The position numbers and the translations under genes were made by a program. 64,000 bases of DNA from Tetracentron sinense (taxonomy: Eukaryota > Streptophyta > Magnoliopsida > Trochodendrales > Trochodendraceae), in NCBI GenBank assembly GCA_015143295.1, contig CM026551.1:45434034-45498033 (forward strand), written 5' to 3'. A model generated the notes under the pieces. The model worked only from the letters and a program-made list of their open reading frames with translations, searched no databases and was not told the DNA's origin. Below, in pieces: positions 5,240 to 60,734 of the stretch. Position 1 is the first letter of the stretch. Each line of letters begins with the position of its first letter.

Positions 5240-5362
5240 GCGATCTATCGCAAACCAAGTGCGATCGATCGCAAATTAGTGCTATCTATCGCAAAATTCT
5301 ACGATCGATCACATTCAGGTGAGTTTTTTTTATTTCCTTTCGGGTCTAAGTGCGATCGATCG
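5240..5362 (+). promoter_or_regulatory. Phased palindrome cluster in U3 of the 2.7-kb LTR
   Basis: Five motifs, two of them with the perfect GCGATCGATCG core and the others one- or two-base variants, start at about 5240, 5261, 5281, 5301 and 5352. The first four are 20-21 bp apart. The cluster sits 60-180 bp upstream of TATAAATA at 5423. Confidence 0.75.
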
Positions 5363-5422
5363 TACTCGCGCCCAGATTTTTTTTAAAAAGTGTGTTTTTG
5401 GGTTATTTTAACCCTTGGGGGC

Positions 5423-5430
5423 TATAAATA
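5423..5430 (+). promoter_or_regulatory. TATA box of the 2.7-kb LTR
   Basis: TATAAATA follows a G-rich stretch and precedes an AAGAAGAAGAGG-rich region typical of an early transcribed region. The same box exists at the homologous place in the copy at 14863-14870. Confidence 0.7.
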
Positions 5431-7010
5431 GGGGTTCTAAACCATTTTTAACCTAATTTGGCAAAGAAGAAGAGGAAACCTAAGGTTCTAAGTAGCTTAG
5501 AGGAGAAAGGTTTTGCTTAGAGAGGAAGAGGATTAGCTTGGAGATCTTCCCCAAAGTCTTCTTGAGCGATTTGGATCAAAGGAAAGGATCCCTAAGGTCG
5601 ATATCCCTTTTAACTCAACCCTATTTAGGTGTTTTGTATGCTTAAACTACAATATGTATGGATTATTAAGAGATCTACATGAATATGTATGAACTAAAGA
5701 ATGGAAATATGAATTAAGTCAATATCCTCTCTAATTTAACTCTTGTATTATTATTATTATTATTATTATTGAATTAGTATGAGAAATGATGGATTAGTGT
5801 TGGATTTGCATGATAAGTAAGGATATGGATGGATTTATATTTTAGAAGCTTAAATTGGATTATGGATTATGAATGAATGAAAATGATGGTGGATGGGCTA
5901 AAATAGAGAATGGATGAATGTATGGATTGATGTTGGGTTTGAAATGGATGAATGTGGTTTATGAATGAGTAATGATATGGTTTTGGAATGTGAAAATAGA
6001 AAGGACATTGTATGCATAATTAATGCATCGTATGTGTTTGCTGAAATGCCTAAGAACACTAAGTATGAAAAGTGATGATATTGAAAGACTTGTATGAGTA
6101 TAATAAGATATGCTATGATAAATTATGCTTAGATGTGATGTTAAAAATGTTAGCATGAATATGTCAAGGTATAAAGTATGTTTTGATCAATTGTGCTTAT
6201 TCAAGTTGCATAGTGATTGATATTCGGGTAGGCCAATGCTTAGAGGAAGTCCTTTATGTCGGGAATTCTCTAACTAGGGAGATGTAACCTATCAAAGTTT
6301 CTTGACGGAAGATGGAATCTAAGTGATGACTGAATTCGGATGTTAATCACGACACGCAAGCACAAGTGCACATGCATGGTAGTTATCAAGTCTCACGGGT
6401 ACATAGATATTGCATGGACATGGACATTGCATAGACACGGACATTGCACGAACACTGAATACTGAAATACAAGTACAAGGACTCTGAACACTGAAATACA
6501 AGTACAAGGACAAGGACACTGCATGATTTTTACAAGGACCCTGAAAATCAAGTAGCTCCGGTATTCGTTGATACTCTCCATGGATAAGATTTCAAGTCCT
6601 GAATAATTATCATGGACATTTGAGATCCAAGAGCTCTAGGGGCTTACACTTTTGTCGATGCACCTCCATGGATCTAAATACAAAGACCTCGATAACTATT
6701 TTTATGGGAAAATAAGCATGCATTGCATTCATGATACAAGTTCAAGAGTTACAAGTCCAAGAGTCACAAGTTCAAGAGTCACACAAGTACACGAGTCAAG
6801 TTAAGTCATGACGTTCACATGTTTCCGTACTCTGATTATATTCATGTTATAATTAAACTGCTATTGACTTTACAATTGCTACATGATTTGGATATTGGAT
6901 ATATACATGTGCTATTGTTGGTTTGTTTGGATATCCACTGAGTATTCAATACTCAGTTGACCTGTTATTGTTGTACAGGTATAGCGCAGGATCAGGCGGC
7001 AACTCCTCGG

Positions 7011-7094
7011 ATGGAAGAGGAGTACTTTGAAGAAGGAGAAATAGGTGAGCTTCTAGATGAGGGAGGCAGGGAATTTGAGAGTTATCCATGCTAG
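7011..7094 (+). CDS. Small acidic ORF in the 3' part of the 2.7-kb LTR
   Basis: A 27-residue frame starts MEEEYFEEGEIGE and ends with a conserved Tyr-Pro near its C-terminus. The homologous place in the inverted LTR copy (13527-13610, minus strand) keeps the frame, the acidic character and the Tyr-Pro end in spite of strong nucleotide divergence and a codon-sized length change. A splice-acceptor-like TTGTTGTACAG lies about 34 nt upstream. No function is known to me, and it may be part of a spliced N-terminal extension of gag. Confidence 0.4.
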   Translation: MEEEYFEEGEIGELLDEGGREFESYPC

Positions 7095-9016
7095 TAGATC
7101 GTAGTTTACTTTCTAAGTTGTTTTGTTTTAGACTTATGTTACTCCAGGATGTTACTTAGATTGTCTACCGTTATTTGATGACTTTACTTTACCCGATCAT
7201 GGTGGGTTATGTTGGGCTCATTTCAGTTTATATTTGTGGATTTGGATTACTATCGATTTATCATATATCAGATGAGAGGTTTTTATGGAAAGAATTTTAT
7301 TGTTGCTATTTGGGGAGAATTATCTTTTAGTTTGCCTTATTGTTATGAAGATCAAGCAGGGATAAGTAATGTGGCGGACCCAAAGTCCCATTATGACCAA
7401 GGTGGGGTTTTTGGGTTGTTACAGTTAGGCACCCCTAAAATCTCATCCGGAGATGGTTACCTACTCCCTAAGTCTGAATTAAAGTAGGGGAAACCATAAG
7501 AGAAGCTTGCATTTCATCTATATGCTTGATAGATATTATATGAACAATAATGTACATGTTGAAATAAGTAGGGACATGATAGGAGCTCTATCCTAGGTGA
7601 GCTGAACCCGATCAGGGTTGCCTACGTATCCACTATTAGTGGAATCAAGTCACAAGTAGTTTCAAAGGGTAGTTGATGGTTTGATTTGATTTGTTTGGAT
7701 TGGGGGTGTTTGGTAGGTTGAGATTTGTCTTCGGATGTTAGGGTGTTTTTGAATGGTTTAAGCTCATATTCAAGAGCGTTTGAGCCTTTTAGGCTCTTGC
7801 CGAGGAGCACTTGGGGTGTGACTAGGGATTTGATAGGATTTGAACCAAGGTTCGGATAGAGGTTCAACTAGGTTGTTAGGTTTTGAACCAAGATTTGAAC
7901 CGAGGTTCGGCAAGGTTGGGCTAAGTTTGAAACGAGATTTGGGCAGAAGTTCGACTAGGTTAGGCTAAGTTTGAACCAAGATTTAGGTAGAGGTTCGACA
8001 AGGCAAGGCTAGTTTTGAACTGGGATTTGGGCAGAGGTTTGACTAGCAGTCTAAGCAATTAAAGTAATTTAAAAAGTAATTAAAAATCTAATTAAATTAT
8101 TAAAAGACAAAGCAAGATAGGATTTTGGAGAAAAGTTACCTTCCGAGAAATCTGAAAAGATTTCTGAAAAGGGGTCCTGAGAATCGACCCTTCACAATCG
8201 ACTTTCTCGGGAATCTAGGCACTAAAGAAAAGTTTTGAAATCGGAAAGGGAGAGAGAGAGAAGTGAATTGGTGAGAAATGAATGAAGAGAATGGGGGTAT
8301 TTATAGTGTTTCGGAATAGTGTTTGCGCCGTTTTAAAGGGCGAAATTAATATTAAAAAAATGAATAGTAAAGCAGTGTGAATAGTAGGGGCAGGAGGCAA
8401 TACAGATAAAATTGAAATCGTGCAGTTTTAAAAGACGTAATTTACTAATATTTTATTAAAAACAATAAAAAATGAAGTGCACATTGCCGGTGGGGCCCAC
8501 ATGGGCTTGCACCTTTTAAAACGGCGAAATTGCCCTAGGGCCCTGTTTGGCCCCTCAAAAAACTAGTTTCTTTTTTGTTTTTCTGGTTTATTTGTTGCGC
8601 TCCGATTTGACGAAAATTGATTTTTGCATTTTACGCCCGTTTTGACTCTGAAAATAGCCAAGATTGAACCAAAAAAATTGTAAAATTATTTTGGACAAAA
8701 TGACAACTTTTGAGCACTTTTCTAGGGGTATTTTGGTCATTCTAACCTCGAGGACATTTTTGGTCATTTCCTCGCTTTAGGCCCAATTTGATCCAAAACG
8801 CAGCTGAAATTGAACTGGTAAAATCCAGAAAAATATTTTAGATAAAATGAGAGTTTTTCAGAACTTTTCAGAGGTATTTTAATAATTTTGCACTCCAGGA
8901 GCATTTTGGTCTTTTTTTGTTTTACCTCGGGCATTTCTGAAAATCGAAGCACGGGAAAAGAGGGTTTTTAAAGGTGTGGAAAGAGAAAAAAATGGTACAA
9001 AATTGGGGTGTTTACA

Positions 9017-10525: not shown

Positions 10526-10719
10526 TACATGAGTCGAGATCCTTTGGGGAGACCTCCACAAAGAATCCTTGAAGACTCTTTCTTTATGAAATGCGTACCC
10601 ACTAATGAGTCAAAAACTCTTTTTCACCAAGTCTGTTTTGGGTTTTATGATTAATGATAACTAGTGGGCCGCACGAGAGAGAGAGAGAGGGGAGGAAGAG
10701 AGAGTTTGAAAAGAGGGAC

Positions 10720-11110: not shown

Positions 11111-11234
11111 TTAAGAATAATTTTTTTAGAGACTTGTGACTAAGAAAATAAATAAAAAAATTCAATAATAACATAACATGATCCAACTAGACCGGTCGAA
11201 TTGGTCACCCAACTGGTCTCATTATGAAAACTTT

Positions 11235-12346: not shown

Positions 12347-12347
<1 letters not shown>

Positions 12348-12378: not shown

Positions 12379-12379
<1 letters not shown>

Positions 12380-12744
12380 ACTAATTAACAAAAATATTCT
12401 TTATGAGAGGGAAACATAGTAGGGACTGAAATGAAATTAAAATTTTTATCATTAATTAATAAATCCGAAACAGACTCAGTGAAAAACAATTGAGTTTTTT
12501 TTACTTATTAGTGGGGTATGTATTTGATTAAGAAAGAGTTCACAAGGACTTTTTGTGGAGGTCTCCACAAAGGATCTCGACTCATACTGTGTCGCGCCTC
12601 AAAACCCCACATTGGTCATAATTGGACTTTAGACCCATGACACTGCTCATCTCTGCTTAACTTAATAGCATACAAGGTAATACTAGAGTGAGAGCCTAAA
12701 ATTTTCTTTTAACATAGAAGAACTTTTATCTCTCATGTCAAGTG

Positions 12745-13379
12745 GCTTAGACCTCCCTAAGGTAGAATTAAATTGAATGTGGATGGTACTTCTAAAGGCA
12801 ATCCAGGTTTAGCAGGAGGAGGTAGTATTATTCAAGATCATTCTGGAGTAATGATTGCTTGCTTCTATTCATTTTATGATAATTGCTCGAATTATGTTGC
12901 TGAGACTAGAGCTCTTCTTGATGGCCTTAATCTTTGTCAAAGTCTAGGTTATCTTCAGGTAGATGTTGAATCTGATGCTAAAACCCTTGTGGAAGCTTGG
13001 AAGGGTTCTTTAAGTCATCATTGAAATGTTTGGTGTTGGAATAAAAATCTTATCCAAGTGGTGGATATTTGCTCTTCTATTACTCATATTTATAGGGAAG
13101 CTAAAATGGTTGCTGACTTTCTTGCTAATCATGGATGTAACACTCAGCTCTCAGGTCAATTTTTTTCTACTCAGGATGGTTCCTCTCACCTTATATGATA
13201 AAGTAGGTTTGGGTAATGTTAGAATAGTTAATAATATTTGATTGTATTTTTTGTTATTCTTTTGTGTAAGGGTAAGGTTTTATGTCCCCCCCCCCCCCCC
13301 TCCCCCGAATTTTTATTCTATTAATAAACTGGTAGGGGTCCGCCAAACCCCTCACTCCCTTTGAGTGGTTAAAAAAAAA
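12745..13379 (+). pseudogene. 3' fragment of a LINE: RNase H domain and poly-A
   Basis: The frame from 12773 begins NVDGTSKGNPG and continues through GGSIIQD, VAETRALLDGL and VESDAKTLV. This matches the RVT_3-type RNase H at the C-terminus of many plant non-LTR retrotransposons, which removes RNA from the RNA-DNA hybrid. An in-frame TGA at 13022-13024 interrupts it. The same frame continues to HIYREAKMVADFLANHG near 13090-13140. A C-rich tract (13286-13306) and an A run at 13371-13379 follow. It is 5'-truncated, as usual for target-primed insertions. Not a host gene. Confidence 0.75.
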
Positions 13380-13526
13380 CCATTGAAATATAATCCTGTG
13401 ACCAATGTAAACATATCATAATTTGGATCATTCATCATAATCCCCATATAAAACCAAGTCTAAGCAACATCAACTAAAAGTATAAAGTATCTATTACAAC
13501 TCTTCAATGTAAAGAAAGTCTAGATG

Positions 13527-13672
13527 TCAATAATAAGGATAACGGTCCAAGTTTCGCTCTCCCTCCTCAATGGAATCACCTTCTGGTTCTTCTAGGTATT
13601 CCTCTTCAATCCATTGCTCAGCGGGTACAACACAGATGTCAAAGCCTACACCGGCCAATTACATCAAAAGTA
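13527..13672 (-). CDS. Acidic ORF in the inverted 2.7-kb LTR copy
   Basis: The minus-strand frame is open from about 13672 to a TGA at 13527-13529 and includes IEEEYLEEPEGDSIEEGE, aligning with the acidic ORF at 7011-7094. The Met of the other copy is Ile here, so the start may lie elsewhere or be spliced on. Confidence 0.35.
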
Positions 13673-13884
13673 TAATTGAGCAACGAATAGCTCAATGGAC
13701 ACAAAGTGTAAAATAACAACGTAATAGCACATACACATAATCAATATCATAATTCATGGCATATTTATATGAACAGAGTGCGGAAAACATGTGAACATGT
13801 CATATCATCACCTTAACTTGTGTACTTATATGACACTTGAACTTGTACTGTGAACTACATGCATGCTTGAATCCATGAGATGGT

Positions 13885-14010
13885 GTCTAGAACTTGGAAC
13901 ATGTTGGTAACCATGAGATAATATCCAGAACTTGGAACATGTAGGTAGCCGTGAAATTATATCCAGAACTTGGAACATGTAGGTAACCATAAAATGATAT
14001 CCATAACTTG
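13885..14010 (-). repeat. 38-bp tandem repeat in the LTR
   Basis: About 3.5 copies contain CTTGGAACATGTAGGTAACC. The other family member has a different short tandem block at the matching place (about 6395-6530), so this LTR region expands repeatedly. Confidence 0.7.
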
Positions 14011-14928
14011 TATTCATGAGGTGCGTGTACTCGTGAGACTTGTAACCTACCACACATGTAAACTTGTACTTGAGTGTCGTGATTAACATTCGTTTAGGTT
14101 ATCCATTAGATTTCGACCTTCTACCATAGAAGCTCTGCTATAGTGTCTTATTCCACCCTAGTTAGAGAATTCCGAGTTAGAAAGATTTTCTATAAGTCTT
14201 GACCTATCCGAATTCCAACCACCATGCAATTTATATAATTCATAATTTAACATGGAGTTCATGCATAGTACTTGACCATAAATTCACAATTCAATAACAT
14301 GACTCATATTCAACAATAATCACCATTTATTTTTATTATATACATTTTTCTTGCACTCATGCATAAAATGCCCTTCCTCTAATATACACAACCATTTTCC
14401 ATTCACATTTATGATCAAACCCTATCAAATTCATCCAATACCTCTACAATCACTTCCCATCCCCCATTTCACACATCCATATAATTAAACATCAAAATCA
14501 ACACCATAATAATTAAATCATGCTCAATATAACTCATAAACACATGCAAAACTCCTTTAATGCTAAAAATTTATAAATCCAAACATAATCATGCAATCAC
14601 TTGATATCCACTCTCATTCTTGTCTATACATGCAAAAACATCATAATAGGGTTAGGTTAGACAATATATCGACCTTTGGGACTACGGATATCCAATCGCT
14701 AGAGAATGATCCTCGTGGCGATCTCCGAGCCAAATCTCCCTTCTCCAAGCAAAATCGTTATTCTTCAAGAAAATCTCCCTTGAAACCCTAGGTTTTCTTC
14801 ATTCCTTAGCCAAAATTAGGTTTAAACCATTTGAGACTCTAAAACCCTCAAATTAGAATGCCTATTTATAGTTTGGGGGGTTTAAAACCCTAAAATTCTG
14901 AAGTTCTATAAAATCCTATGCGTGTATT

Positions 14929-15080
14929 CCAATCAATCGGAACTTATGTTCGATCGATCGAAGCTTTACTGCTTTGTTCGATCGATCAGAGTTTACAGTG
15001 CAATCAATCGGAGCTTGCACAATATTTATGGTAATTTTCCTGTTCATACCGATCGATCAGAGGTTACAATGCGATCGATT
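14929..15080 (-). promoter_or_regulatory. Phased palindrome cluster, inverted LTR copy
   Basis: Six GATCGATC-type motifs start at about 14931, 14952, 14980, 15002, 15051 and 15073. Intervals are 21, 28, 22, 49 and 22 bp. TTCGATCGATCGAA (14949-14962) is a perfect 14-bp palindrome. The cluster is 60-210 bp upstream (minus strand) of TATAAATA at 14863-14870. Confidence 0.75.
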
Positions 15081-15304
15081 GGAGCTTCTGTTTAACCATT
15101 TAAACATTTCAAATACTTCGAGCCCTTCGATTTACACCAAGCACATATGAAAACACAAAAGTAACAATTTACTCTTTTCAATCGTAACAATGGTGCAAAA
15201 GTAAATTTGGGTCTCTACGTACTGCATTTGTGACGGAAATAATATAAGGTCACTTTACAGGACATAAGTGGATTTGAGTTAGTAGAAGCCTATTAAACCA
15301 CTAG

Positions 15305-30231: not shown

Positions 30232-31614
30232 TGTTAGCCTATAGGTTTTCACCTTAGGTCTCCATATTGATTTTGATGATAACACAATAATAGAATGAGA
30301 TTTTGTTACTAATGTCTCTCTTGAGCTTTTATTGAAAAACAGTCTACTAAGAGCATTAGCAAACCATTTAGTGAAAAAGCATGAAAGAGACTCCATCTAT
30401 AAAGAAGATTCATCACCAAGTCAAGCCAAGTCATTGGATCTTGTTGGATCACATTGAAGATAATCAAAGATCATATCAAAAGCCAAAGTCCAAGTCGGAT
30501 CATCAATAAGATTGAAGATTTGATCATGAAGCTAAAGTCAAATCATCTCAAGAATTGTAGATGAAGACTCTCAAGAAGGTTTTATAGTCTGCAAGAGTAC
30601 TTAGGATTTATGTAAGAAATCCTCAAAGTTTGGTCGGTTGAATTGCTTAATACTTAGATTTACCATAAGTGCCTTAAGACCCAATTGAATATCAATCTAA
30701 GGACCTAAAACATGATAAATATCTTGTTAAAGATAAGGTATAAGACCAAGAAAATCATGTCCATCATATTGGTTAAGCAAAGATGAGTTTTCTGAGAAAA
30801 ATCAGAAGACTCGTCGACGAGTGGGTTTGAGTAACTCATACTCGTTGACGAGTGAAGTAGCAGAAGCTACTGTTCTTTTTTACCATCTGACTCGGTGATG
30901 ACTGAGAAGTGTAGCTGTGCACTCGTCGACGACTGTTACGGGAAACCTCTCTAACGGCTAGTTTTTTAACGATCATATTTTCTCAATGAGCCTTCAACGA
31001 CTATATATTTGCAAAGCTATAAATTGAGATGATTAATGAAGAAAAAAATAACTCTAATAATTCCAATCACTCATTCAATCACTCCAAAGCTTAGAACTCC
31101 AAATCTATTAAGTTTACCCTAGAAATCCCAAAACCAAGTTCTTGAGCTATTCAACTCCTATCTTTGAGGGATTCATAGAAGATCTTAATTGTAATCTATT
31201 AGCTCGTTCTAGGAGCATTTCAAGATTGTAAACACTTATTCCAAGTGTGTTGAAATCAAGACATTCGTGGGAGTCTTATCCATTAAGCCGGGAGCTTTGT
31301 AAGGTATGATCTTTACCCGTAAAGAGATTGTATCGGTTTGATCTTCACCCGAAAGAAGATCATGTGATTAGGTATAAATCATGGTAAATCCTCTAATTGG
31401 TATAGCCTGGGGCGGGGATGTAGGCATGTCAACTTGTGTTTGCATTCTCTCTAACTCTATTATTTATTTATTGTTTTGAATGCTTGTGTAGAATTGAATA
31501 ATTCTTTTCCCTTTTAATTTTTTTAATTGAAATTCGGCTTAAGGGAATAAGTAAGAAATTTTAAATTGCCTTAGACCCTATTCACCCCCTCTAGGGTCCA
31601 ATCCTTGGACAACA
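30232..31614 (+). mobile_element. Ty1/copia solo LTR (SIRE/Maximus-like), 1383 bp
   Basis: It starts TGTTAGCC and ends GGACAACA, with a perfect CTAAG duplication at 30227-30231 and 31615-31619. The end segment TATTCACCCCCTCTAGGGTC resembles SIRE/Maximus LTR ends. A palindrome cluster (30809-30934) lies upstream of TATAAATT at 31018. Confidence 0.85.
30809..30934 (+). promoter_or_regulatory. Phased ACTCGTCGACGAGT palindromes in the Copia LTR
   Basis: Perfect 14-bp palindrome ACTCGTCGACGAGT at 30809-30822, one-base variant at 30840-30853, weak copy near 30890, near-perfect copy at 30921-30934. Intervals are 31, 50 and 31 bp. The TATA box follows at 31018. Confidence 0.75.
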
Positions 31615-45307: not shown

Positions 45308-46740
45308 TGTAGACACCCAATTTTGCTCGTCCCAATGCCATTTTTAGCTCCAAATATCGAATGGTGAACTCAAGGAAGAGATCCGGACTCCAAATAACCT
45401 GAGGTCGAAGCCAAAAACAAGCCCAACCCAACCCGAGTTTGAACCAGCCAAAGCCCAAGGGCCTATTTTAAAAATATAAAATGTCTAGCGCACTTTTAAA
45501 GGGCGCGGTTCCTTTTTTTGTCCAAAATCCTTCCGGTGGCTTTTGAAACAGCTCGGTCCCGTTTTTAGTGAAAATTTGATCTCGCGGCTTTTGAAACAGC
45601 TCGGTTCCGTTTTTAGTACAAATTTGATCCCCGCTGCTTTTAAAACAGCTTGGACCTGTTTTTTAGTGAAAATTTGATCCCGCGGCTTTTAAAAATGCGC
45701 GATTACGGAAAACTTTAAATCTGACCTCGTTTTGCGTGCCAACGTACTTTTGGATTATTTTTAGTCCCACATCGGCCAGAAAGCGAGAAAACCCTACTTT
45801 TCACCTTATAAAATGAGCCTCACCTCAACCCATTCCTCAACTTTGAACTTTGGAACCTTTGAAGAACTTCGAACCTTGGAAAGAACTTTTGAACCTTTGA
45901 AAACCCCTAGCCTTTGGAGGTCTTAGACTTAGAGAGCAAGTCCAGAAAATCCAGAATCCTTCAAAGCCTTAGAATGTTCAAGGAGCTTCTTCGAGTTTGT
46001 CGATCTGGGCTCCCTTTAGTTCTTCTTCAACACCTACTTTAGGGAAAAGGGGGCCTAGTTCATTCGAGTCTGGTTTTTATCATCGTGGAAGGACATTCTT
46101 GGATGCTTGGAAAGCCAAATAAAAGGGAAAAGGTATGCTACATCCCTCATCTTCTACTTCTACCCATCCAAGTCTTTTCTTCCCTCACTTTCCCTTAGTA
46201 TCTCGGTGATTTCCCTCTACATGGTCGTGGGGAAGAGAAAATCCGGGTGAAGGAAAGGACTAGAAGACTAGATCTTCGATTTCTTTATTTCATTTTTTTG
46301 TTAGTAGTTTTTGTCCCTTTTGCACCCAAACGTAGGCGGTAACTTGGTCGAGGAGAGACTGTGACCATTCGTTGATTTAGGGAAAAAGGGTTTTTGCCAC
46401 GCAAGTAGAAAGAAAATCACCCTAACTCAGTCGAGGAGGGGTGAGTTTCCAATCTTGAAATAATAAAAAAAATAATAATAATAATTTTAAATTAAATTAA
46501 TGGAGAAAATTCAGAGGTAACCGTCGTTTGACGGATGAGGTGGGGTGCCTAACACCTTCCCCAACTCATAAGAGAATCCCCGGACCCAATCTCGATTTTT
46601 ATTTAAATCAAGGGTTTTCATTGTGGGTGACCAGCCACACTCGGATTTTTGGTTGGTGGCGACTCTAAAAGATCTCGACTTCTCATCAGTTGAAAAACAC
46701 TGATGTGGGGGGGAAATCGACCCGAGCCGGCTATCGCACA
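45308..46740 (+). repeat. 5' LTR of the Tat/Ogre-like element
   Basis: Starts TGTAGACACCCAATTTTG and ends CGCACA, 1433 bp. U3 holds three tandem about 49-bp units (45537-45700, GGCTTTTGAAACAGCTCGG) directly before the USE/TATA promoter. Confidence 0.75.
45764..45814 (+). promoter_or_regulatory. USE-like box plus TATA in the Tat/Ogre LTR
   Basis: GTCCCACATCG at 45764-45774 is an exact plant snRNA upstream sequence element; TATAAAAT starts at 45807, with a 32-bp spacer. In snRNA genes this longer spacing specifies RNA polymerase II. The 3' LTR repeats the layout (63241-63251, 63285, 33-bp spacer) with one base changed. Confidence 0.6.
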
Positions 46741-46742
46741 AC

Positions 46743-51146: not shown

Positions 51147-52363
51147 TGATGTCGCTCAAAGATACGCGGTACTTTGCAGTACAGTAAAGGGGGTTGTCGA
51201 ACCACAGAGAGCAGTGAAAATAAGGAACAATAATGGAGAAGAGGGTTGTCGGATCTTTGGTAGGGAATGTTTAACTAAATTAAGGAAAATATCAGTGAGA
51301 AAAACCAACAAGGCATCAAGTTTCCTCCCCTTAATGGTGCAATGTCAATTTGATTGTCCAAGGTATAACTCAATTGGGGGTTTCACATCCCAAACCCTCA
51401 ATCGGAAGATTTTAGAAATTTAGATTATAATAAAAAGTTAAAATAGATTTCTAGTCAATTGTTCAAAACGAATTTTAACCCAAGCCCGCACTTTATCGGA
51501 AAAACTCGAGGACGACGATATACCCGGAGGCAATACCGCAGCAAAGAATAATGTCCGTTAAGATGAAGGTTTTTCGTTTGAGAAATCAAGAATTGTCACT
51601 TAACTATGAGAAAAGCCTGACTGAACTCGTGAAAAGGTTTAAATCCTAGAGATTCAATTAAAAGAGATCAAACAAGAAGAACAACCAACATAGAAATCAT
51701 AGACGTTAAAAACACTACTTGGATTAACTCAAACTAACATTACCTCATCAAGAGAATTCCACCCTAGCCAAGGCTAGGGATTTAGTAATCCATACAAAGA
51801 GAAAAACTAAAACAATAAGGGAAGAGAGATGATTCAAGGGTCAGAGGTTCAGAGCCCTTTTTCAATACTTCTCCATGAGTTTAAATAACTAAAAGGGAAG
51901 GAGAAGAATGAAACTAAGTAAAAAGGGAAAGTTTCCAATAAAAAAATCTCGCTCAAAATAGTCAATTCGCGGCCAAAAATGCTAGTCCAGCAACCACCGA
52001 TCGATCGGGCCTTCAATCGTAAAAATCCGGAAAAAATCCCCGCCTTCCGATCGATCGGCGATTCTGGCTGATCGATTCGGCGATCCGATTGATCGCCGGA
52101 GATCGCCGATCGATCGTCCAGATCGCTGATTCGCCATTTTGCCTATTTTTTCATCCTTTTTCGGCTTTTCTTTTTGTTGATTACCATGAGGCTTCTTTAC
52201 TCGAATTCCCTACATAAAATATCATAGAAGATGATTAGAATTTGCAATCAATAATTGGGGAAACAAGTTTAGAATATAGGCTTTAAATCAAGGATTCAGA
52301 CTAAAAGGGGCTCTAAAGGGTTATAAAATAACTGGTTTTGAGTGTACTTTTGCACACTCATCA
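51147..52363 (-). repeat. 3' LTR of the Athila-type element
   Basis: 1217 bp. Carries GATCGATC motifs at about 51999, 52049, 52070, 52087 and 52108, with 21-bp spacing between 52049/52070 and 52087/52108. It lacks the first about 21-bp unit present in the other LTR. Confidence 0.95.
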
Positions 52364-52376
52364 CACCCCCCAACCT
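52364..52376 (-). other. Polypurine tract of the Athila-type element
   Basis: Minus-strand GGTTGGGGGGTG abuts the 3' LTR. A similar AGGTTGGGG...G tract with 18 G occurs internally at 53706-53727, a possible second priming site. Confidence 0.75.
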
Positions 52377-53853
52377 GAATATTGATCGTCCCTAGCAATA
52401 AATCAACTCTCAAGCAAATCACTTAACCAATCGATCTTCATGAATATAGGCTACAACATTCAAATCATTCAAACAGGGGTTTTGCAAGAAATTCACCACA
52501 ACATCCAAGTTTCTCCATCAATAAGCAAACTCAGAATTTGTATGTGTGTGCTAAGCTCATAACCATTCTTGCCAACAAACCCAAAACACATACGAATAAG
52601 ATAGACATCTAGATAAAAGCTTTGACAACAAATCTCACAAGGATTTTAAATCACTCAGAGTAATGCACTCAGAGATTTATGGGTCTTCTCTCAATCATAT
52701 GAAAAATAAAATGCAAGACCAAAACACAAACCTACCTAAGATCAAAAGGTCAGTAACAGGGATTATAATGGGGCTAAATGGTAGGGTTTATAAGAATGAA
52801 GGAATAAGGATAATCAACAAAACCAGGTATATGCTAGGAATATTGATACATCTTCATTGTGAAACAAACATCCATAAATTCCTTCTTCTTTTCCAATTCA
52901 GAGTTTCCTTCTTTATTCTTCTCTTTTTTTGATTTTTCCCAATGTAGAACAAAACTTGTACTTCTACTTTTTTCAACACTTTTTTTTTGAACATTATCCC
53001 CACGAAATGTTTTTGAACGGCATTATCCCAATTGAATTTTCCATGACCTGAATTTGCAGTCCCCTTTTTTTTTTTCGAATTTCCAGTTTACCACTTGAAT
53101 TTCCAATACCACAAAACTATCATCCCTAGCATAAACTCTGGTTTAAAGGGTAATGGAATGTATAAAATGGGTTGAACTCCAATGAGGAGTCGGTAGGATC
53201 ATGTGGTTTTCTCAAGAAAGGCTTCTTTTAGGCTCAAAGTGGCTCTTATTGTTAATGATAAGGGTTGGCTTGAAAGGCTCAAACTTTCTACACTGACCTT
53301 TATCATTTCTTAGGTAATTCAACCAAACTAACCATGACCCATGTAATGACATTTCCAATGGACAACCAAGTGAAGAAAATAATGAGATCCAACAAGGGAA
53401 TAATGCCGCATGAATAAAAACACCGAATAATAATAATAATCGCTCCCAAAGATGAGAAGGGTTCAAAAACTCACAGGTGTTATAGGTCTTAGCTGAAATC
53501 TGAGATGTCTTCTTAAAGTATGAGTTTAACAACCAACATCCACTATGGCTTACGTGCATAAGAAAAATTTGAGTTTGCTCATAACAGATGACAAGAATAG
53601 TCTAGATGACTCAATTAAAACACCCTATTTTCATGCTCAACAGCCAATCCACAATTCATGCAAAAAGATATGACAAAGATATTTGATTGAGATTTGACTA
53701 TCATTCCCCCCCCCCCCCCCCCCAACCTAAATCAGACATTGTCCTCAATGTTCCATAAATGAAATAAAAGATAAGGAAAAGGAACACAAGGAAGGGTAGA
53801 TAGCACCTGAGAATATAAGTGAACTTCTAATAGTGGGAACCTGCAAGGTGAGC
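52377..53853 (-). other. Region between integrase and 3' LTR, Athila-type element
   Basis: In Athila elements this is where an envelope-like ORF can lie. Only a 115-residue minus-strand frame (53559-53212) is present, with a hydrophobic stretch but no motif I recognise, so no envelope-like gene is called. It contains an 18-base C run (53706-53723). Confidence 0.5.
53706..53723 (+). repeat. (C)18 homopolymer
   Basis: Eighteen consecutive C bases followed by AACCTAAATCAG. On the minus strand this is a G run after GGTT, resembling an expanded internal polypurine tract. Confidence 0.9.
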
Positions 53854-56709
53854 TCAAACAAACAAAAAAAACTCATATACAAAGAGGCGGAGACTCACAA
53901 AGGTAAGTCCATCCCGGTAAACGGGATCCGCAAGAGGGGTAATTACTTTTTCGGGTAGAAGCCTCTCGAGAGCGGGCTTGAGTTTGTGGCCATTGACTTT
54001 AAAAATTCTGCCGTCTCGAGGGTCTTCTACCTCAACAACCCCGTGATCAAATACTTTTAACCACGACGGGCCCATACCATCTAGACCTTAGTTTTCCCGG
54101 ATGCTTATAGAGTCTAGAATCATACAAGTACACTTTTTGATTCGGTTCAAAATATTTTCGCAAAATTCTTTTATCATGAAAAACCTTTATCTTGTGTTTG
54201 TAGATTATAGAGCTCTCATAAGAGTCATTTCTAAGCTCCTCCAACTCAGTTAATTGGAATTTTCGTAACTTTCCGGCCTCACTCAATTCAAAATTGAAGG
54301 CTTTAATAGCCCAAAAAGCTTTATGTTCAAGTTCCACAGGCAAGTGGCAAGGCTTTCCAAAAACAAGCCTATAGGGGGACATACCAATGAGAGACTTATA
54401 AGCAGTACGGTACGCCCAAAGGGCGTCGGTTAGTCGTAAAGACCAATCCTTACGGTCGGGGTTAACCATCTTTTCAAGAATTTGTTTGATCTCCCTATTG
54501 CAAGTTCTACTTGGCCACTTGTCTGGGGATGGTAAGCGGTGGAAACCTTATGAACAATTTCATACTTTTTCATTAAGGTCTCAAAAGGTCTATTACAAAA
54601 GTTGGTGCCTTGATCACTAATGATGGCACGTGGCATCCCAAATCTAGACAAAATATGTTCTTTTAAGAATTTAATAACAGTCCTATTATCATTGGATTTG
54701 CGAGCCACGGCTTCAACCCACTTGGACACATATTCCACACCAACCAAAATATACAGGTAACCAAAAGATGGGGGGAAAGGGCCCATAAAGTCAATACCCT
54801 AACAATCAAAAATTTCAATTACTAGAATGGGGTTTAGGGGCATCATATTCCGGCGAGAAATTACTCCCAACTTCTGGAATCTATCACAAGAACGACAGAA
54901 TTTATTAGTGTCTTTAAAGAGGGTGGGCCAATAAAATCCACACTGTAGAATTTTGGCAGCAGTCTTTTTCATAGAAAAGTGTCCACCACATGCCTCGGAA
55001 TGACAAAAGTTTAAGACACTCATAAATTCGTCATTAGGAACACACCTCCTCATAATATGGTCAGGGCAATATTTGAACAAATAGGGATCATCCCAATAAA
55101 AATTGCGTACCTCAACCAAAAATTTGCGTTTATCCTGGGTGTTCTAATTCAATGGGATCCATCCTGTAGCAAGATAATTAACAATATCAGCGTACCATGG
55201 CAGTTCAGATATAGAAAATAAATGTTCATCTGGAATATCATCATGAATAGGCATTGTTTCCGGATTATTTTCACAAACAAGTCTTGATAGGTGATCAGCC
55301 ACTACATTCTCCACGCCATTTTTATCCTTAATTGTGATATCAAATTCTTACAATAATAAAATCCACCTAATGAGTCGTGCTTTAGCATCCTTCTTTGTAA
55401 GAAGGTACTTAAGTGCCGCATGGTCCGTAAAGATACAAATAGGCGAACCAATCAAATAGGCACGAAATTTATCTAAAGCAAATACTACAGCTAGCAACTC
55501 CTTTTCAGTTGTTGTATAATTCATTTGAGCACTGTTAAGGGTTCTACTAGCATAGTAGATCACACATGGTTTCTTATCTCTCCGCTGTCCTAGAACTGCT
55601 CCCACAGCATAATCACTAGCATCACACATAATTTCAAAGGGGAGATTCCAATCTGGTGGTTGCATGATGGGAGCGGACGTAAGTTTACCAATTAACTTTG
55701 TAAAGGCTTCTTGGCATGCTTTAGTCCAATCAAAGGGAGCATCCTTGAGAAGGAGACTATATAAAGGTCTAGAAATAAGACTGAAGTCCTGTATAAATCT
55801 CCTGTAAAAACCAGCATGACCAAGAAAAGATCTCACATCTTTCACAGTCTTGGGGGTGGGTAAATTTTGTATTAATTCAATTTTTGATTTGTCTACTTCT
55901 ATCCCCTTAGAAGAGACAATGTGGCCTAAAACAATTCCAGAAGATACCATAAAATAGCACTTCTCCCAATTAAGCACAAGATTCTTTTCTTCACACCTCA
56001 TCAATACCCTTTTTAAATTAAGTAGACAAGCATCAAAAGAATCTCCAAAAACTGTAAGGTCATCCATGAAGACTTCTATACAATCTTCAACCATATCACT
56101 AAACATGCTCATCATGCATCTTTGAAAAGTGGCTGGGGCATTGCATAGTCCAAATGGCATCCTTCGAAATGCATAAGTGCCAAAAGGATAAGCAAAAGTG
56201 GTCTTATCCTGGTCCTCTAAGGCAATTTCAATTTGATAATAACCAGAATAGTCATCTAAAAAGTAATAGAAGGAATGTCCAACCACCCTCTCCAATATTT
56301 GGTCAATGAAGGGTAAAGGAAAGTGATCTTTTCGGGATGCAGCATTTAATTTTCTATAGTTAATGTACATTCGCCACCCGGTCACTAATTTAGTGGGGAC
56401 TAGCTCTCCAAGCTCATTCTGCACAACAGTGACTTCTGACTTTTTAGGTACCACCTGCGTAGGACTAACCCATTTACTATCGGCAATTGGGTAAATAATA
56501 CCCGCATCCAATAGTTTTAAAACTTCAGATTTTACAACTTCTTTCATAGTTGGGTTTAGTCTGCGCTGAGGGTCTCTAGAAGCCTTAGCCTCTTCTTCAA
56601 GATTTATCTTGTGGGTGCATACTAAAGGGCTTATTCCCTTAATATCTGCTATAGTCCACCCAATAGCAGATTTATGGTCATTTAAAATTTTCAGCAATTT
56701 ACCTACCTG
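53854..56709 (-). pseudogene. Athila pol: reverse transcriptase, RNase H, integrase (disabled)
   Basis: Reverse transcriptase-RNase H is open from 56697 to 55348 (449 codons). It has MPFGLCNAPATFQ and the catalytic FMDD at about residue 209, then CDASDYAVGAVLGQ, TTEKELLAV and TDHAALKYLL of RNase H. The integrase follows with an HX-type zinc region (about 55000-54890), SDQGTNF and [10 protein letters not shown] of the catalytic core (about 54610-54510), and a C-terminal segment (54469-53854) with GRIFKVNGHKLKP. Lesions: in-frame stops at 55348-55350, 55144-55146 and 54799-54801; single-base frameshifts near 54500 and 54055; and one at the gag-pol junction near 56755. These enzymes copy and insert the element; this copy cannot make them intact. 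Confidence 0.9.
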
Positions 56710-56732
56710 AAATTCAAATAATACAGAAGAAA

Positions 56733-59345
56733 TTACAACAGGGAAGGTATCACCTGGGCTAAAAAAGCATGTTTCAAACCATTTGGCAGTTTCTTAAGCT
56801 CTAGATTTGGCACTTCAACACTGGAGGGTAGAGACTTTGGCTTTTCCTTAGGTAACTCCTTGAATTGTGGTTGCCAACCTTTTGTCCCTGGAACCTGTGC
56901 ATTAAATAAAACACAAATTTCAGCAAGCTCATTTTTATCGAAAGAATTAATATCAATTTGAGAATTAGCAAGAAGAGTTTTAAGAGAGTTAGACGAATTT
57001 GGTGATTCGAATTCTTCTTGCACAACTACTTCGATCCAATTTGTAGTTTCGCACTCATCATGTCTTGGCAATTGTTTACCAATATTGAAAATATTAACCT
57101 CTAGGGTCATATTTCCAAAAGATAATTTCATTAATCCATTCCTGCAATTAATTAAAGCATTAGATGTAGCAAGGAAAGGTCTACCCAGAATAATTGGGAT
57201 TTTAGAGTCAGCATTCACCACAGATTGTGTGTCCAAGATAAGAAAATCAACAGGGTAATAAAATTTATCTATCTGGACTAAAACATCCTCCACTACCCCC
57301 CTCAGTTTCCTTACAGATCGGTCAGCCAATTGTAACACCACAGTAGTGGGTTGTATTTCTCCTAGGTCAAGCTGTAAATAAACTGAGTAGGGCATTAAGT
57401 TAACACTTGCCCCAAGATCAAGCAAAGCTTGTTCAAAGTCATGGTCCCCAATAATACAAGAAATTGTAGGGCACCCAGGGTCTTTATATTTGAGAGGAAT
57501 CCTGTGTTGAATTAGAGCACTTACCTGTTCTGTGAGAAAAGCAGTTTTCTTCACATGATGCTTCCTTTTGATGGTGCACAAATCTATTAAAACCTTGGCA
57601 TAAGTGGGCACTTGTTTGATAACATGCAAAAGTGAGAGATTTATTTTCACTTGCCTAAGATTTTCTAAGATTTCAGTATGACAATCCGACTTTCTTGATG
57701 ATTTTAAGGCTTGAGGAAATGGCACGGAGATAGGACTTCGAACTACCTCACTGATTTTGGGCACATTAACATCATCATTATTACTCGTGTCATCGGTTTC
57801 ATCCTCTAATTCTTGGGTAGAGTTAGGGATGTCTTTAGCTTTTCCACTACGAGTAGTAATGACATTAATTTGCTCAAATTCTTTCTTCTCGATGGTAGAG
57901 TCTTGTACCATGTGTTGACCTTGAGGGTTTTGTTGAGTTTGGGAAGGAAATCTCCCTTTCTCATTAAAACTCAAAGAATTTGTCAATTTAGATACATGAC
58001 TTTTAACTTCCTTAAATTCCTCAGCCATTTGAGTGAACAATGCTTCAAATTTTTGATTGGTTTTACCTTGAACATTTATGAAAGCATGCAATGTCTCCTC
58101 AAGAGGACTCCTAGATGGTAATGATGTATTAGGTGCAGAAAATTGAGGTGCAGTGAAATTTCTAAGGGGCATCTGTTGTTGAGGGGTTTGAGAATTATTA
58201 CTCCAGCTAAAGTTAGGATGATTTTTCCAAGCTGAGTTATAAGTCTCAAAGTAAGGTGAATAGGGCTTCCTGTAATTGCCCATAGCATTACAATGTTCCT
58301 CATACACCCCCCTCATCTCCTGGAGTGTTGGACACTCTTTGGTAGGATGCTCAGTCTCATGGCAAATCTCACAATTCCATCTGGTCTCTCCCTGATAAAC
58401 AGTAGTAGTTGTCATTTTCTCTTTCACACGTAGAGCCTCAACTTCCTTAGTTAAGCTCTCCAATCTGGCCTTTAGATTATCTTCTTCTCTTAGGTGAAAA
58501 ATCCCTCCACTAGAAGGAGTGGAGGTGGGTGTCAACCTACTAGTGCTTTCAGTAGCACTAGGTCCTGTCCAAGTATGGGCTTTTTCAGCCAACTCACTCA
58601 AATAATCCATGGCCTCATCGGGGTCTTTTTGAAAAAATTCCCCATTGCACATCATCTCAATAAATTGGCGTTCTCTAGGAGTAAGTCCTTCATAGAAGTA
58701 AGTCACTAGGCGCCAACTTTCATACCCATGATGTGGGCACAAACTCAGAAGATCCTTATATCTTTCCCAGGCCTGATACAAGGTTTCACTCTCTTTTTGA
58801 GTGAATGTAGAAATTTGCCTCTTCAAAGCATTCGTCTTATGATTAGGAAAATATTTATGGAAGAATGCTTGAGTCATCTCCGCCCATGACCCAATCGACC
58901 TAGGCCTCAAAGAATACAGCCAACTCTTTGCTCTATCTTTCAGAGAGAATGTAAAAAAGTTGAGCCTGGCAACATCGATGGTGCCTAGTTGATTGTGAAA
59001 CGTGGCTACCACCTCTTCAAATTCTCTACTGTGCACATATGGGTTTTCATTATCTAAACCATGAAAAGTGGGGAGGAGTTGAATCATCCCTGGTTTAAAA
59101 TCAAAATTTTGCACATTAGGAGGAAATATAATGCAAGAAGGTGTGGCAACCCGTGTAGGGTGTAAATGCTCATGAAGAGTTTTAACTTGATGATCCCTGT
59201 GTTCACTCATTGTGCTATGTGTAGAGTCAAGTGAAACAGAATCAGATTCCGGGGGTGTATCAAATAAATTTGTAAAGAGAGTTTCAGATTCTTCCGGTCT
59301 CTTCGCAAATCTACCTAATTCGTTCCGGTATCGATGCATGCACAA
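56733..59345 (-). CDS. Athila gag and aspartic protease polyprotein
   Basis: An 870-residue open frame on the minus strand. The N-terminal capsid region includes MIQLLPTFHGLDNENPYVH (about residue 88-106) and SWLYSLRPRSIGSW. A zinc knuckle CEICHETEHPTKEC (CX2CX4HX4C) lies at about residue 323-336. The protease active-site motif LLDLGASVNLMP lies at about residue 638-650, with IILGRPFLA downstream. Gag builds the particle and protease processes the polyprotein. It is the only long undisturbed retroelement frame in the window. The frame ends early just before reverse transcriptase, apparently from a single-base shift, since the other frame continues collinearly. The upstream leader is only about 140 bp from the primer site. 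Confidence 0.92.
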   Translation of the reverse strand: MCMHRYRNELGRFAKRPEESETLFTNLFDTPPESDSVSLDSTHSTMSEHRDHQVKTLHEHLHPTRVATPSCIIFPPNVQNFDFKPGMIQLLPTFHGLDNENPYVHSREFEEVVATFHNQLGTIDVARLNFFTFSLKDRAKSWLYSLRPRSIGSWAEMTQAFFHKYFPNHKTNALKRQISTFTQKESETLYQAWERYKDLLSLCPHHGYESWRLVTYFYEGLTPRERQFIEMMCNGEFFQKDPDEAMDYLSELAEKAHTWTGPSATESTSRLTPTSTPSSGGIFHLREEDNLKARLESLTKEVEALRVKEKMTTTTVYQGETRWNCEICHETEHPTKECPTLQEMRGVYEEHCNAMGNYRKPYSPYFETYNSAWKNHPNFSWSNNSQTPQQQMPLRNFTAPQFSAPNTSLPSRSPLEETLHAFINVQGKTNQKFEALFTQMAEEFKEVKSHVSKLTNSLSFNEKGRFPSQTQQNPQGQHMVQDSTIEKKEFEQINVITTRSGKAKDIPNSTQELEDETDDTSNNDDVNVPKISEVVRSPISVPFPQALKSSRKSDCHTEILENLRQVKINLSLLHVIKQVPTYAKVLIDLCTIKRKHHVKKTAFLTEQVSALIQHRIPLKYKDPGCPTISCIIGDHDFEQALLDLGASVNLMPYSVYLQLDLGEIQPTTVVLQLADRSVRKLRGVVEDVLVQIDKFYYPVDFLILDTQSVVNADSKIPIILGRPFLATSNALINCRNGLMKLSFGNMTLEVNIFNIGKQLPRHDECETTNWIEVVVQEEFESPNSSNSLKTLLANSQIDINSFDKNELAEICVLFNAQVPGTKGWQPQFKELPKEKPKSLPSSVEVPNLELKKLPNGLKHAFLAQVIPSLL

Positions 59346-59484
59346 AGCAAAAATAAGAGAATCAATTAAACTACTAAATCAAAAAGGAAAAAGGAACGAG
59401 ATTACCGCTTCGACGAATCAATTTAGCAAACCTCCTCCAAAATTAAAAGAAAAAATAATATATGCTCCTTAGCTTTCGCCTTGC

Positions 59485-59502
59485 TCCCCGGCAACGGCGC
59501 CA
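59485..59502 (-). other. Primer-binding site, tRNA-Asp
   Basis: Minus-strand TGGCGCCGTTGCCGGGGA, the complement of the plant tRNA-Asp 3' end, 5 bases after the 5' LTR; the standard primer of the Athila lineage. Confidence 0.92.
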
Positions 59503-59507
59503 AAATT

Positions 59508-60734
59508 TGATGTCGCTCAAAGATACGCGGTACTTTGCAGTACAGTAAAGGGGGTTGTCGAACCACAGAGAGCAGTGAAGATAAGGAACAATAATGAAGA
59601 AGAGGGTTGTAGGATCTTTGGTAGGGAATGTTTAACTAAATTAAGGAAAATATCAGTGAGAAAAACCAACAAGGCGTCAGGTTTCCTCCCCTTAATGGTG
59701 TAATGTCAATTTGATTGTCCAAGGTATAACTCAATTGGGGGTTTCACATCCCAAACCCTCAATCGGAAGATTTTAGAAATTCAGATTATAATAAAAAGTT
59801 AAAATAGATTTCTAGTCAATTGTTCAAAACGAATTTTAACCCAAGCCCGCACTTTATCGAAAAAACTCGAGGACAACGATATACCCGGAGGCAATACCGC
59901 AGCAAAGAATAATGTCCGTTAAGATTAAGGTTTTTCGTTTGAGAAATCAAGAATTGTCACTTAACTACGAGAAAAGCCTGACTGAACTCTGAAAAAGGTT
60001 TAAATCCTAGAGATTCAATTGAAAGAGATCAAACAAGAAGAACAACCAACATAGAAATCATAGACGTTAAAAACACTACTTGGATTAACTCAAACTAACA
60101 TTACCTCATCAAGAGAATTCCACCCTAGCCAAGGTTAGGGATTTAGCAATCCATAAAAAGAGAAAAACTAAAACAATAAGGGAAGAGAGATGATTCAAGG
60201 GTCAGAGGTTCAGAGCCCTTTTTTAATACTTCTCCATGAGTTTAAATAACTAAAAGGGAAGGAGAAGAATGAAACTAAGCAAAAAGGAAAAGTTCCCAAT
60301 AAAAAAATCTCGCTCAAAATAGTCAATTCGCGGCCAAAAACGCTAGTCCCGCAACCACCAATCGATCGGGCAAGGGTGCCGATTGATCGGGCCTTCAATC
60401 GTAAAAATCCGGAAAAAATCACCGCCTTCCGATCGATCGGAGATTCTAGCCGATCGATCAGCGATCCGATCGATCGCCGATCAATCATCCAAATCGTTGA
60501 TTCGCCATTTTGCCTGTTTTTTCATCTTTTTTCGTCTTTTCTTTTTGTTGATTACCATGAGGCTTCTTTACTTGAATTCCCTACATAAAATGTCATAAAA
60601 GATTATTAGAATTTGCAATCAATAATTGGGGAAACAAGTTTAGAATGCAGGCTTTAAATCAAGGATTCAGACTAAAAGGAGCTCTAAAGGGTTATAAAAT
60701 AACTGGTTTTGAGTGTACTTTTGCACACTCATCA
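59508..60734 (-). repeat. 5' LTR of the Athila-type element
   Basis: 1227 bp, starting TGATGAGTGTGC on the minus strand. Its U3 carries the palindrome cluster at 60360-60486. Confidence 0.95.
60360..60486 (-). promoter_or_regulatory. Phased GATCGATC cluster in the Athila LTR
   Basis: Motif cores start at 60360, 60381, 60431, 60452, 60468 and 60479. Intervals of 21 bp occur twice (60360/60381 and 60431/60452). A TATA-like TATTTAAA lies about 110 bp downstream on the minus strand (near 60240). Confidence 0.75.

What the first reader, a model, noticed from the sequence alone, without database searches (positions are those of the whole stretch)
5240..60486. Helically phased CpG palindromes upstream of TATA in unrelated LTR families
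Four LTR loci from three families (5240-5362 and 14929-15080 in the 2.7-kb family; 60360-60486 and 51999-52115 in Athila; 30809-30934 in a Copia LTR) each carry several short palindromes centred on TC|GA. In the first two families the motif is GATCGATC, in Copia ACTCGTCGACGAGT. Counted centre spacings are 20, 20-21, 21 and 22 bp in the GATC families and 31 bp (twice) in Copia, close to two or three turns of B-DNA, so sites would face the same side. All clusters lie 60-240 bp before the candidate TATA box. Families sharing neither sequence nor lineage seem to have converged on the same promoter architecture. I infer binding by a cooperating dimeric protein, or a target of CpG methylation control.
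Basis: partly seen in the sequence, partly recalled or inferred. Interest (0 to 1): 0.88.

Follow-up and report, generated by a model that had tools for sequence, protein, structure and literature searches.

The report
CpG palindrome arrays before LTR promoters
Several plant retrotransposon families in this stretch carry a row of short mirror-symmetric CpG motifs just before their promoter; rows of this kind are already described for some plant retrotransposons, but here two different families use the same core motif at similar distances from the start box.

Summary
All 12 GATCGATC copies in the window (0.6 expected) lie in four LTR loci of two families; a fifth LTR (Copia) carries ACTCGTCGACGAGT copies. 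A blind scan for palindrome arrays returns these five loci plus two ordinary tandem repeats, and nothing in 40 shuffles. The LTRs are two solo long LTRs, one solo probable-Sirevirus LTR, and the LTR pair of an Athila-like Gypsy element.

The design is largely known: Sirevirus LTRs carry CpG palindrome arrays upstream of TATA (PMC2829016), and Del LTRs have 5' CpG islands (PMC4029996). New here is one core, CGATCGATCG, in a Gypsy element and in a long-LTR family of unproven superfamily.

Cores are conserved (0.81-0.85) while spacers are near chance in three of four families; family B is partly a plain tandem repeat. In three arrays 13 of 16 core deviations are CpG transitions.

The helical claim is half right.

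Best reading: promoter-proximal binding-site arrays open to CpG-methylation control, with unknown protein. The genome-wide test could not be run.

The parts
4721..7423 (+). Family A solo LTR (2703 bp, TGTAGAGACC...GTTACA); superfamily not established
   Evidence: TSD GCTAG/GTTAG with one mismatch; ends; 63-64% identical to B downstream of TATA
5239..5364 (+). Family A array: 5 sites, consensus TGCGATCGATCGCA, centres 5245.5, 5266.5, 5286.5, 5306.5, 5357.5
   Evidence: 12 CpG, observed/expected 2.24 against 0.49 in the rest of the LTR
5422..5431 (+). Family A TATA region CTATAAATAG
12590..15219 (-). Family B solo LTR (2630 bp; begins CG where A has TG); same family as A
   Evidence: perfect TSD CAGTA
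14930..15081 (-). Family B array: 6 sites, core CGATCGATCG, partly a 22-bp whole-unit repeat
   Evidence: CpG o/e 1.80 against 0.43
14862..14871 (-). Family B TATA region CTATAAATAG
30232..31614 (+). Solo Copia LTR, probable Sirevirus (1383 bp)
   Evidence: TSD CTAAG; C-rich stretch CCTATTCACCCCCTCTAGGG at 31577-31596, 18 bp from the LTR end
30809..30934 (+). Copia array: ACTCGTCGACGAGT, 3 good sites and 1 weak (30890)
   Evidence: CpG o/e 1.28 against 0.39
31002..31008 (+). Copia TATA region TATATAT
51147..60734 (-). Athila-like Gypsy element with TSD GAGAA
   Evidence: gag PF03732, protease match below its cut-off, RT PF00078, RNase H; LTRs 93.8% identical
59508..60734 (-). 5' LTR of the Athila-like element
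60357..60488 (-). Array in the 5' LTR: 6 sites, core CGATCGATCG
   Evidence: CpG o/e 1.96 against 0.71
60241..60248 (-). 5' LTR candidate TATA TATTTAAA (picked by eye)
51147..52363 (-). 3' LTR of the Athila-like element
51996..52118 (-). Array in the 3' LTR: 5 sites; aligned with the 5' LTR array there are gaps of 21 bp (one site), 10 bp and 1 bp
   Evidence: CpG o/e 2.14 against 0.70

Best explanation
Each array is a promoter-proximal enhancer of its LTR: several copies of one dyad-symmetric binding site for a host DNA-binding protein that works as a dimer, placed about 60-235 bp upstream of TATA in U3. Copies are gained and lost by slippage or recombination, which makes the 20-22 bp units, while selection in active elements keeps the palindromes and lets the spacers drift. 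Because every site holds CpGs, the array is also where CpG methylation can switch the promoter off. Shown here: position, copy number, conserved core, drifting spacers (three of four), CpG enrichment and CpG decay. Inferred: protein binding, dimer, activation, selection, methylation switch.
For: Core identity 0.84 (A), 0.81 (B), 0.85 (Athila 60 kb), 0.83 (Copia) against flanking 0.25, 0.40/0.65, 0.33/0.34, 0.25/0.29; in A the outer bases TG..CA, not used to pick sites, fit in 18 of 20 cases (counted by eye). A and B are one family by their downstream sequence, yet outside the cores their array regions align no better than shuffles (p 0.395-0.64). CpG o/e 1.28-2.24 in arrays against 0.39-0.71 in the rest of the LTRs. 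Of core mismatches, 7 of 7 in B, 5 of 5 in Athila (60 kb) and 1 of 4 in A are CpG transitions. In the Athila LTR pair 11 of 49 CpG sites changed against 30 of 1108 other sites, p 3e-7. Similar layout in Sireviruses.
Against: Sites were chosen by likeness to the core, which inflates core identity. B's flank is also repeated (0.65), so part of the pattern is plain tandem duplication. No binding, expression, methylation or chromatin data were available. PMC2829016 found no single factor for the Sirevirus boxes. CpG change in the array (6 of 20) does not differ from the rest of the LTR (5 of 29, p 0.32), nor does other change (2 of 71 against 28 of 1037), so the LTR pair itself shows neither protection from methylation nor slower change in the array.
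Confidence: 0.6

Rival explanations
1. Tandem-repeat turnover only: a 20-22 bp unit was duplicated by slippage, and the palindromes are what is left of it, without selected binding.
For: Tandem Repeats Finder calls periods of 20-21 bp at 5239-5295, 52049-52095 and 52085-52131, and of 16 bp at 60450-60482; B repeats flank as well as core (0.65); the two Athila arrays differ by a 21-bp one-site gap; substitution in the Athila array is no slower than elsewhere in the LTR.
Against: Spacers near chance identity in A, Athila and Copia while cores stay at 0.83-0.85; gaps of 28, 31 and 49-51 bp are not multiples of 20-22; the same core recurs in A/B and in the Athila-like element, and B and Athila share nothing else detectable (p 0.94-0.99).
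Confidence: 0.2
2. RNA-level feature: U3 is transcribed at the 3' end of the genomic RNA, and the palindromes form hairpins that act as a small-RNA source or packaging signal; the DNA symmetry is secondary.
For: The four arrays folded (A, B, Athila 60 kb, Copia) fold better than shuffles, z -3.05 to -3.95. In sliding folds, windows over the array give the lowest z in A, B and Copia and the lowest energy in B, both Athila LTRs and Copia. In maize Sireviruses palindrome clusters are small-RNA hotspots (passages).
Against: Any set of palindromes folds well. The position just upstream of TATA points to transcription. PMC10760457 (passage) sees the small-RNA response as a host consequence of cis-regulatory palindromes. 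Compensatory change was not tested.
Confidence: 0.1
3. Strict helical phasing: cooperating dimers must sit on one face of the DNA.
For: Adjacent gaps in the four arrays A, B, Athila (60-kb LTR) and Copia cluster: best period 10.1 bp, p 0.00025 over a 6-16 bp scan, or 10.05 bp and p 0.011 with each gap size counted once per array. At fixed 10.5 bp p is 0.00035 for all gaps and 0.012 for distinct sizes. Sites with at most 1 mismatch give p 0.0001 at 10.2 and 0.035 at 10.5.
Against: With a single 20-22 bp gap kept for all arrays p is 0.012 at 10.2 and 0.18 at 10.5. Gaps of 16-17 and 28 bp are out of phase. Neither Athila array is coherent (p 0.12-0.89). The nulls are uniform gaps, chosen by me after seeing the data; tandem duplicates are not independent.
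Confidence: 0.3
4. Shared U3 module by recombination: the families exchanged a promoter piece, so the common core is homology, not convergence.
For: The same 10-bp core in A/B and the Athila-like element; B and Athila share the order 22-49-22 / 21-50-21 at nearly the same distance from TATA; A against Athila scores above shuffles outside the sites (p 0.005-0.018).
Against: B and Athila, the best match in spacing, show no likeness outside the sites (p 0.94-0.99); the A-Athila score rests on A- and T-rich runs and is uncorrected for six comparisons; B against the Copia LTR scores as high (p 0.003-0.013). No A/B-Athila hit of 60 bases or more in the self-comparison.
Confidence: 0.1

Closest known systems
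Sirevirus repeated-motif (RM) boxes (PMC2829016; passages and section 9 read)
   Same: [quoted passage not shown] Vitis CGGTCGACCG and Tnd-1 ACAATCGATTGT share the TC|GA centre.
   Different: The Copia array here lacks the CGG-CCG signature and has 4 copies where the paper's elements have at least 8; the GATC arrays sit in an Athila-like Gypsy element and in a long-LTR family of unproven superfamily, whereas the paper surveyed Ty1/copia.
Plastic 5' CpG islands of Del (Gypsy) LTRs (PMC4029996; abstract and passages read)
   Same: CpG-rich, fast-changing stretch in the 5' part of long LTRs; [quoted passage not shown]
   Different: The word palindrome does not occur in it, and eudicot Del had no island; here 126-152 bp arrays (A, B) of one dyad motif at 40-41% GC, in LTRs not proven to be Del.
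Tnt1, Tto1 and similar plant LTR enhancer repeats (named in PMC2829016 passages and in the PMC10794571 reference list; details recalled)
   Same: Repeated, sometimes symmetric cis elements in the LTR tied to stress-induced transcription.
   Different: Different motifs; activity was shown there, not here.

Membership tests
Sirevirus (the Copia LTR 30232-31614) | C-rich integrase signal of about 19 bp, on average 21 bp from the LTR end | tested here: met
   C-rich CCTATTCACCCCCTCTAGGG, 18 bp from the LTR end; criterion, where the published letters were not shown, so only C-richness, length and place were compared
Sirevirus (the Copia LTR 30232-31614) | TATA box near mid-LTR shortly after the motif cluster | tested here: met
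   TATA 769 bp into 1383 bp, 67 bp after the array; [quoted passage not shown]
Sirevirus (the Copia LTR 30232-31614) | gag-pol phylogeny, multiple PPT, PBS TATCAGAGC | not testable with these tools
   Solo LTR: no internal region
Sirevirus RM boxes | CGG-CCG core signature | tested here: not met
   ACTCGTCGACGAGT; the paper's own Tnd-1 is also an exception
Sirevirus RM boxes | At least 8 copies per element | tested here: not met
   3 good plus 1 weak copy in the LTR; the internal region is absent
Sirevirus RM boxes | Cluster forms a CpG island | tested here: inconclusive
   o/e 1.28 in the array; best 200-bp window o/e 1.41 but GC 0.43; island thresholds recalled, cpgplot not run
Athila lineage (element 51147-60734) | Gypsy gag-pol with RT | tested here: met
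   PF03732, PF00078, PF17917, PF17919; the 120 listed of 7977 protein hits are 52-83% identical over 48-99% of the query, and those with a species name are plants
Athila lineage (element 51147-60734) | RT clade placement | not tested
Del/Tekay lineage (A, B) | Long LTR (1.2-3.7 kb in the eudicot groups) and U5 att with GGG at -8 to -10 (type A, the eudicot type) | tested here: inconclusive
   Lengths 2703 and 2630 fit; A has GGG at -9 to -11, B has no GGG there (criterion)
Del/Tekay lineage (A, B) | Chromovirus gag-pol | not testable with these tools
   Solo LTRs; no coding region, so even the superfamily is unproven

The most novel reading that the evidence does not exclude
Unrelated LTR families in one plant genome share a promoter grammar read by one class of host protein: dyad CpG sites in a common register to TATA (sites near -114 and -135 in A, B and Athila; near -185 in B, Athila and Copia; a 49-51 bp step in all four arrays if weak sites count), so the host factor and its spacing, not descent, set U3 architecture.
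Probability: 0.18. Interest if true: 0.75.

Novelty: new variant of a known kind. Interest (0 to 1): 0.4.

Why it matters
If the arrays bind one host protein, they would show that Copia and Gypsy LTRs arrive separately at the same methylation-sensitive promoter design, and would give a concrete motif (CGATCGATCG) with which to find that protein. Even without it, they extend palindromic LTR boxes, described as a Sirevirus feature among Ty1/copia elements, to an Athila-like Gypsy LTR and to a second long-LTR family, and offer one reason why such LTRs can have a CpG-rich, fast-changing patch before TATA.

Tried and rejected

Relatives: a viral-contig search with the RT frame found none. The DNA pattern ACTCGTCGACGAGT hit 82 stretches (80 listed) and the spaced CGATCGATCG pair 2 stretches; I opened none of these and cannot say what they are. 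Protein searches with open frames across the Athila and A arrays, meant to read spacing from mis-annotated proteins, found nothing (75 candidates, none scored E 10 or better; no candidate).

Papers: GATCGATC with retrotransposon gave 17 papers, none on LTR motifs by title. CGATCGATCG / TCGTCGACGA with plant and motif gave 12, none on LTRs by title; one of the 12 was opened and uses the string in a synthetic example. Athila with palindrom and LTR: 24 papers, 15 listed, 6 of these opened in passages; none of the passages seen describes palindrome arrays in Athila U3. PMC11656987 on plant LTR motifs has no mention of palindromes (passages). PMC4963935 (passages) gave no letters to test A and B with. 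Bousios 2016 (Genome Res) is not held, so I cite it only through.

Sites: dropped before counting gaps were the 3-mismatch sites centred at 52014.5 and 60396.5; kept were 52073.5 (3 mismatches, ATCGAT intact) and Copia 30896.5 (4 mismatches). In the tests over four arrays Athila is represented by its 60-kb LTR. Core mismatch classes were not counted for the 52-kb Athila array or the Copia array. Searches used LTR ends up to 9 bp off the final ones; the LTR lengths, ends and flanks printed are superseded.

Palindromes as integration targets (PMC6911290) was considered: that paper reports a weak preference at insertion sites (passages), which does not explain arrays inside LTRs.
Full report
What is there. 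The window looks like plant DNA rich in retrotransposons: of the 120 listed (of 7977) protein hits to the pol frame at 55351-56793, those with a species name are plants. The five loci of the finding are LTRs. A (4721-7423, plus) and B (12590-15219, minus) are solo LTRs of one family, 63-64% identical downstream of TATA, with target-site duplications GCTAG/GTTAG and CAGTA/CAGTA; they have no coding region, and their superfamily is not established (Del/Tekay is possible by length only). The Copia LTR (30232-31614) is solo, with CTAAG on both sides, and has a C-rich stretch where Sireviruses have their integrase signal. The Athila-like element (51147-60734, minus) has LTRs 51147-52363 and 59508-60734 flanked by GAGAA.

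Is it more than chance. GATCGATC: 12 copies, 0.6 expected (60 shuffles), all in four loci. CGATCGATCG: 8 of 8 exact copies and 9 of 10 one-mismatch copies lie in the arrays. A scan over 10-bp palindromes for three copies within 130 bp returned 19 hits: 11 in the five LTRs, 8 in two ordinary tandem repeats (66-bp and 44-bp units); 6 more from A/T-only or two-letter palindromes were set aside. Forty shuffles returned none.

Anatomy. Arrays are 123-152 bp and begin 138-577 bp into the LTR; their near ends are 58-108 bp from the TATA box. CpG observed/expected is 1.28-2.24 in the arrays and 0.39-0.71 in the rest of the LTRs (LTR ends there up to 9 bp off the final ones). The dyad differs between families in its outer bases (A TGCGATCGATCGCA, Athila often CCGATCGATCGG, Copia ACTCGTCGACGAGT), but all centre on TC|GA, as do two of the 13 published Sirevirus boxes (Vitis and Tnd-1).

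Palindrome or plain tandem repeat. Pairwise identity among copies is 0.84, 0.81, 0.85 and 0.83 for the core in A, B, Athila (60 kb) and Copia. For flanks it is 0.25 in A, 0.40 left and 0.65 right in B, 0.33 and 0.34 in Athila, 0.25 and 0.29 in Copia. Sites were picked by the core, so the core figures are inflated; in A the outer TG..CA pair, not used for picking, still fits in 18 of 20 bases. So in three of the four arrays the palindrome, not the unit, is what lasts. In B a 22-bp unit is partly repeated as a whole. A and B, one family, are not alike in the array region outside the cores (p 0.395-0.64). Against this, the Athila LTR pair shows no slower change in the array than elsewhere (next paragraph).

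Methylation. In the Athila LTR pair 11 of 49 CpG sites changed against 30 of 1108 other sites (p 3e-7). Within the array the figures are 6 of 20 CpG and 2 of 71 other; elsewhere 5 of 29 and 28 of 1037; neither class differs between array and rest (p 0.32 and 1.0). Core mismatches are CpG transitions in 7 of 7 (B), 5 of 5 (Athila 60 kb) and 1 of 4 (A). This is the mark of methylated CpG, and it suggests that the six B and six 60-kb Athila sites were all perfect once. It is inference from mutation pattern, not measured methylation.

Spacing. Adjacent gaps: A 21,20,20,51; B 21,28,22,49,22; Athila 60 kb 21,50,21,16,11; Athila 52 kb 50,21,17,21; Copia 31,50,31. In four arrays (Athila by its 60-kb LTR) the best common period is 10.1 bp (p 0.00025 over a 6-16 bp scan), or 10.05 bp and p 0.011 when each gap size counts once per array. 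At fixed 10.5 bp p is 0.00035 for all gaps and 0.012 for distinct sizes, but 0.18 when a single 20-22 bp gap is kept (0.012 at 10.2 bp). By locus, phase coherence at 10.2 bp beats random placement in A, B and Copia (p 0.004, 0.037, 0.029) and not in the Athila LTRs (0.117, 0.215); at 10.5 bp only A does (0.029).

Two leads I had not been told to look for, both post hoc. First, each array has one gap of 49-51 bp (p 0.00015 under random placement of four arrays); but the Copia one rests on its weak site and B's on a two-mismatch site, and with sites of at most one mismatch only A (51) and Athila (50) keep it. Second, site distances upstream of TATA coincide between arrays more than chance: 11 pairs within 2 bp against 4.5 (random placement, p 0.003) and 3.8 (rigid shift, p 0.008). 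This survives dropping the weak Copia site (11 pairs, p 0.0017 and 0.0013) and using only sites of at most one mismatch (7 pairs, p 0.013 and 0.013), and is weaker with the 52-kb Athila LTR instead (8 pairs, p 0.041 and 0.043). A and B are one family, so they are not fully independent. B and Athila match best (112.5, 134.5, 183.5, 205.5 against 114.5, 135.5, 185.5, 206.5), though for that pair alone the rigid-shift p is 0.07. The Athila TATA was picked by eye.

Shared descent of the U3s. With the sites masked, B and Athila show no likeness (p 0.94-0.99), nor do A-Copia or Athila-Copia; A-Athila (p 0.005-0.018) and B-Copia (p 0.003-0.013) score above shuffles. Those two alignments run through masked stretches and A/T-rich runs and are uncorrected; I read them as weak, but common descent of part of the A and Athila U3 is not excluded.

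Structure. The four arrays folded (A, B, Athila 60 kb, Copia) fold better than shuffles (z -3.05 to -3.95). In sliding windows, array windows have the lowest z in A, B and Copia and the lowest energy in B, both Athila LTRs and Copia; in A the lowest-energy window lies elsewhere (6890), and in the Athila LTRs the lowest-z window only partly covers the array. Palindromes must do this, so it does not by itself argue for an RNA role.

What is known. PMC2829016 (passages and section 9 read) describes palindromic repeated motifs in Sirevirus LTRs that form CpG islands upstream of TATA, calls them Sirevirus-specific against the classic Ty1/copia elements studied, and could not name a binding factor. 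PMC4029996 (abstract and passages) describes variable 5' CpG islands in Gypsy Del LTRs of monocots, absent in eudicots, and speculates about escape from host control. PMC5311732 and PMC10760457 (passages) report that maize Sirevirus palindrome clusters attract small RNAs, and the second calls palindromic repeats a frequent cis-regulatory layout. So the Copia case is a variant of a known thing. Arrays with the core CGATCGATCG in Gypsy or long-LTR families I did not find in print in the searches, which cover open-access papers only; I opened 12 papers, all in part.

Verdict. Real, ordered, and largely a known design in a new place. The most likely function is a promoter-proximal, dimer-type binding array that CpG methylation can silence. 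The helical-phase claim is suggestive but not settled, and the genome-wide test that would settle it could not be run because the genome search did not complete.

Noticed in passing
58723-58830 (+): Rfam snoR71 (RF00097) match, 42.8 bits against a cut-off of 40, lying antisense inside the gag-protease frame of the Athila-like element. Either a chance match or a hint that the family model overlaps retrotransposon sequence.
   Followed up: no
51996-52118 and 60357-60488: The two LTRs of the Athila-like element differ by gaps of 21 bp (one site), 10 bp and 1 bp inside the array, while the rest of the LTR alignment has no gap: the array changes copy number faster than its surroundings.
   Followed up: partly
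24073-27366 and 29031-33968: A segment of about 3.3 kb is present twice at 77-89% identity; the second copy is split by the solo Copia LTR.
   Followed up: no
46128-46588 and 63525-64000: A direct repeat at 83% identity lies on either side of the Athila-like element; it may belong to an older element into which the Athila-like one inserted (letters seen).
   Followed up: no
40794-41444 (+): Frame with a MatE domain (PF01554, 1.4e-24), the one host-gene-like frame among the ten scanned.
   Followed up: no
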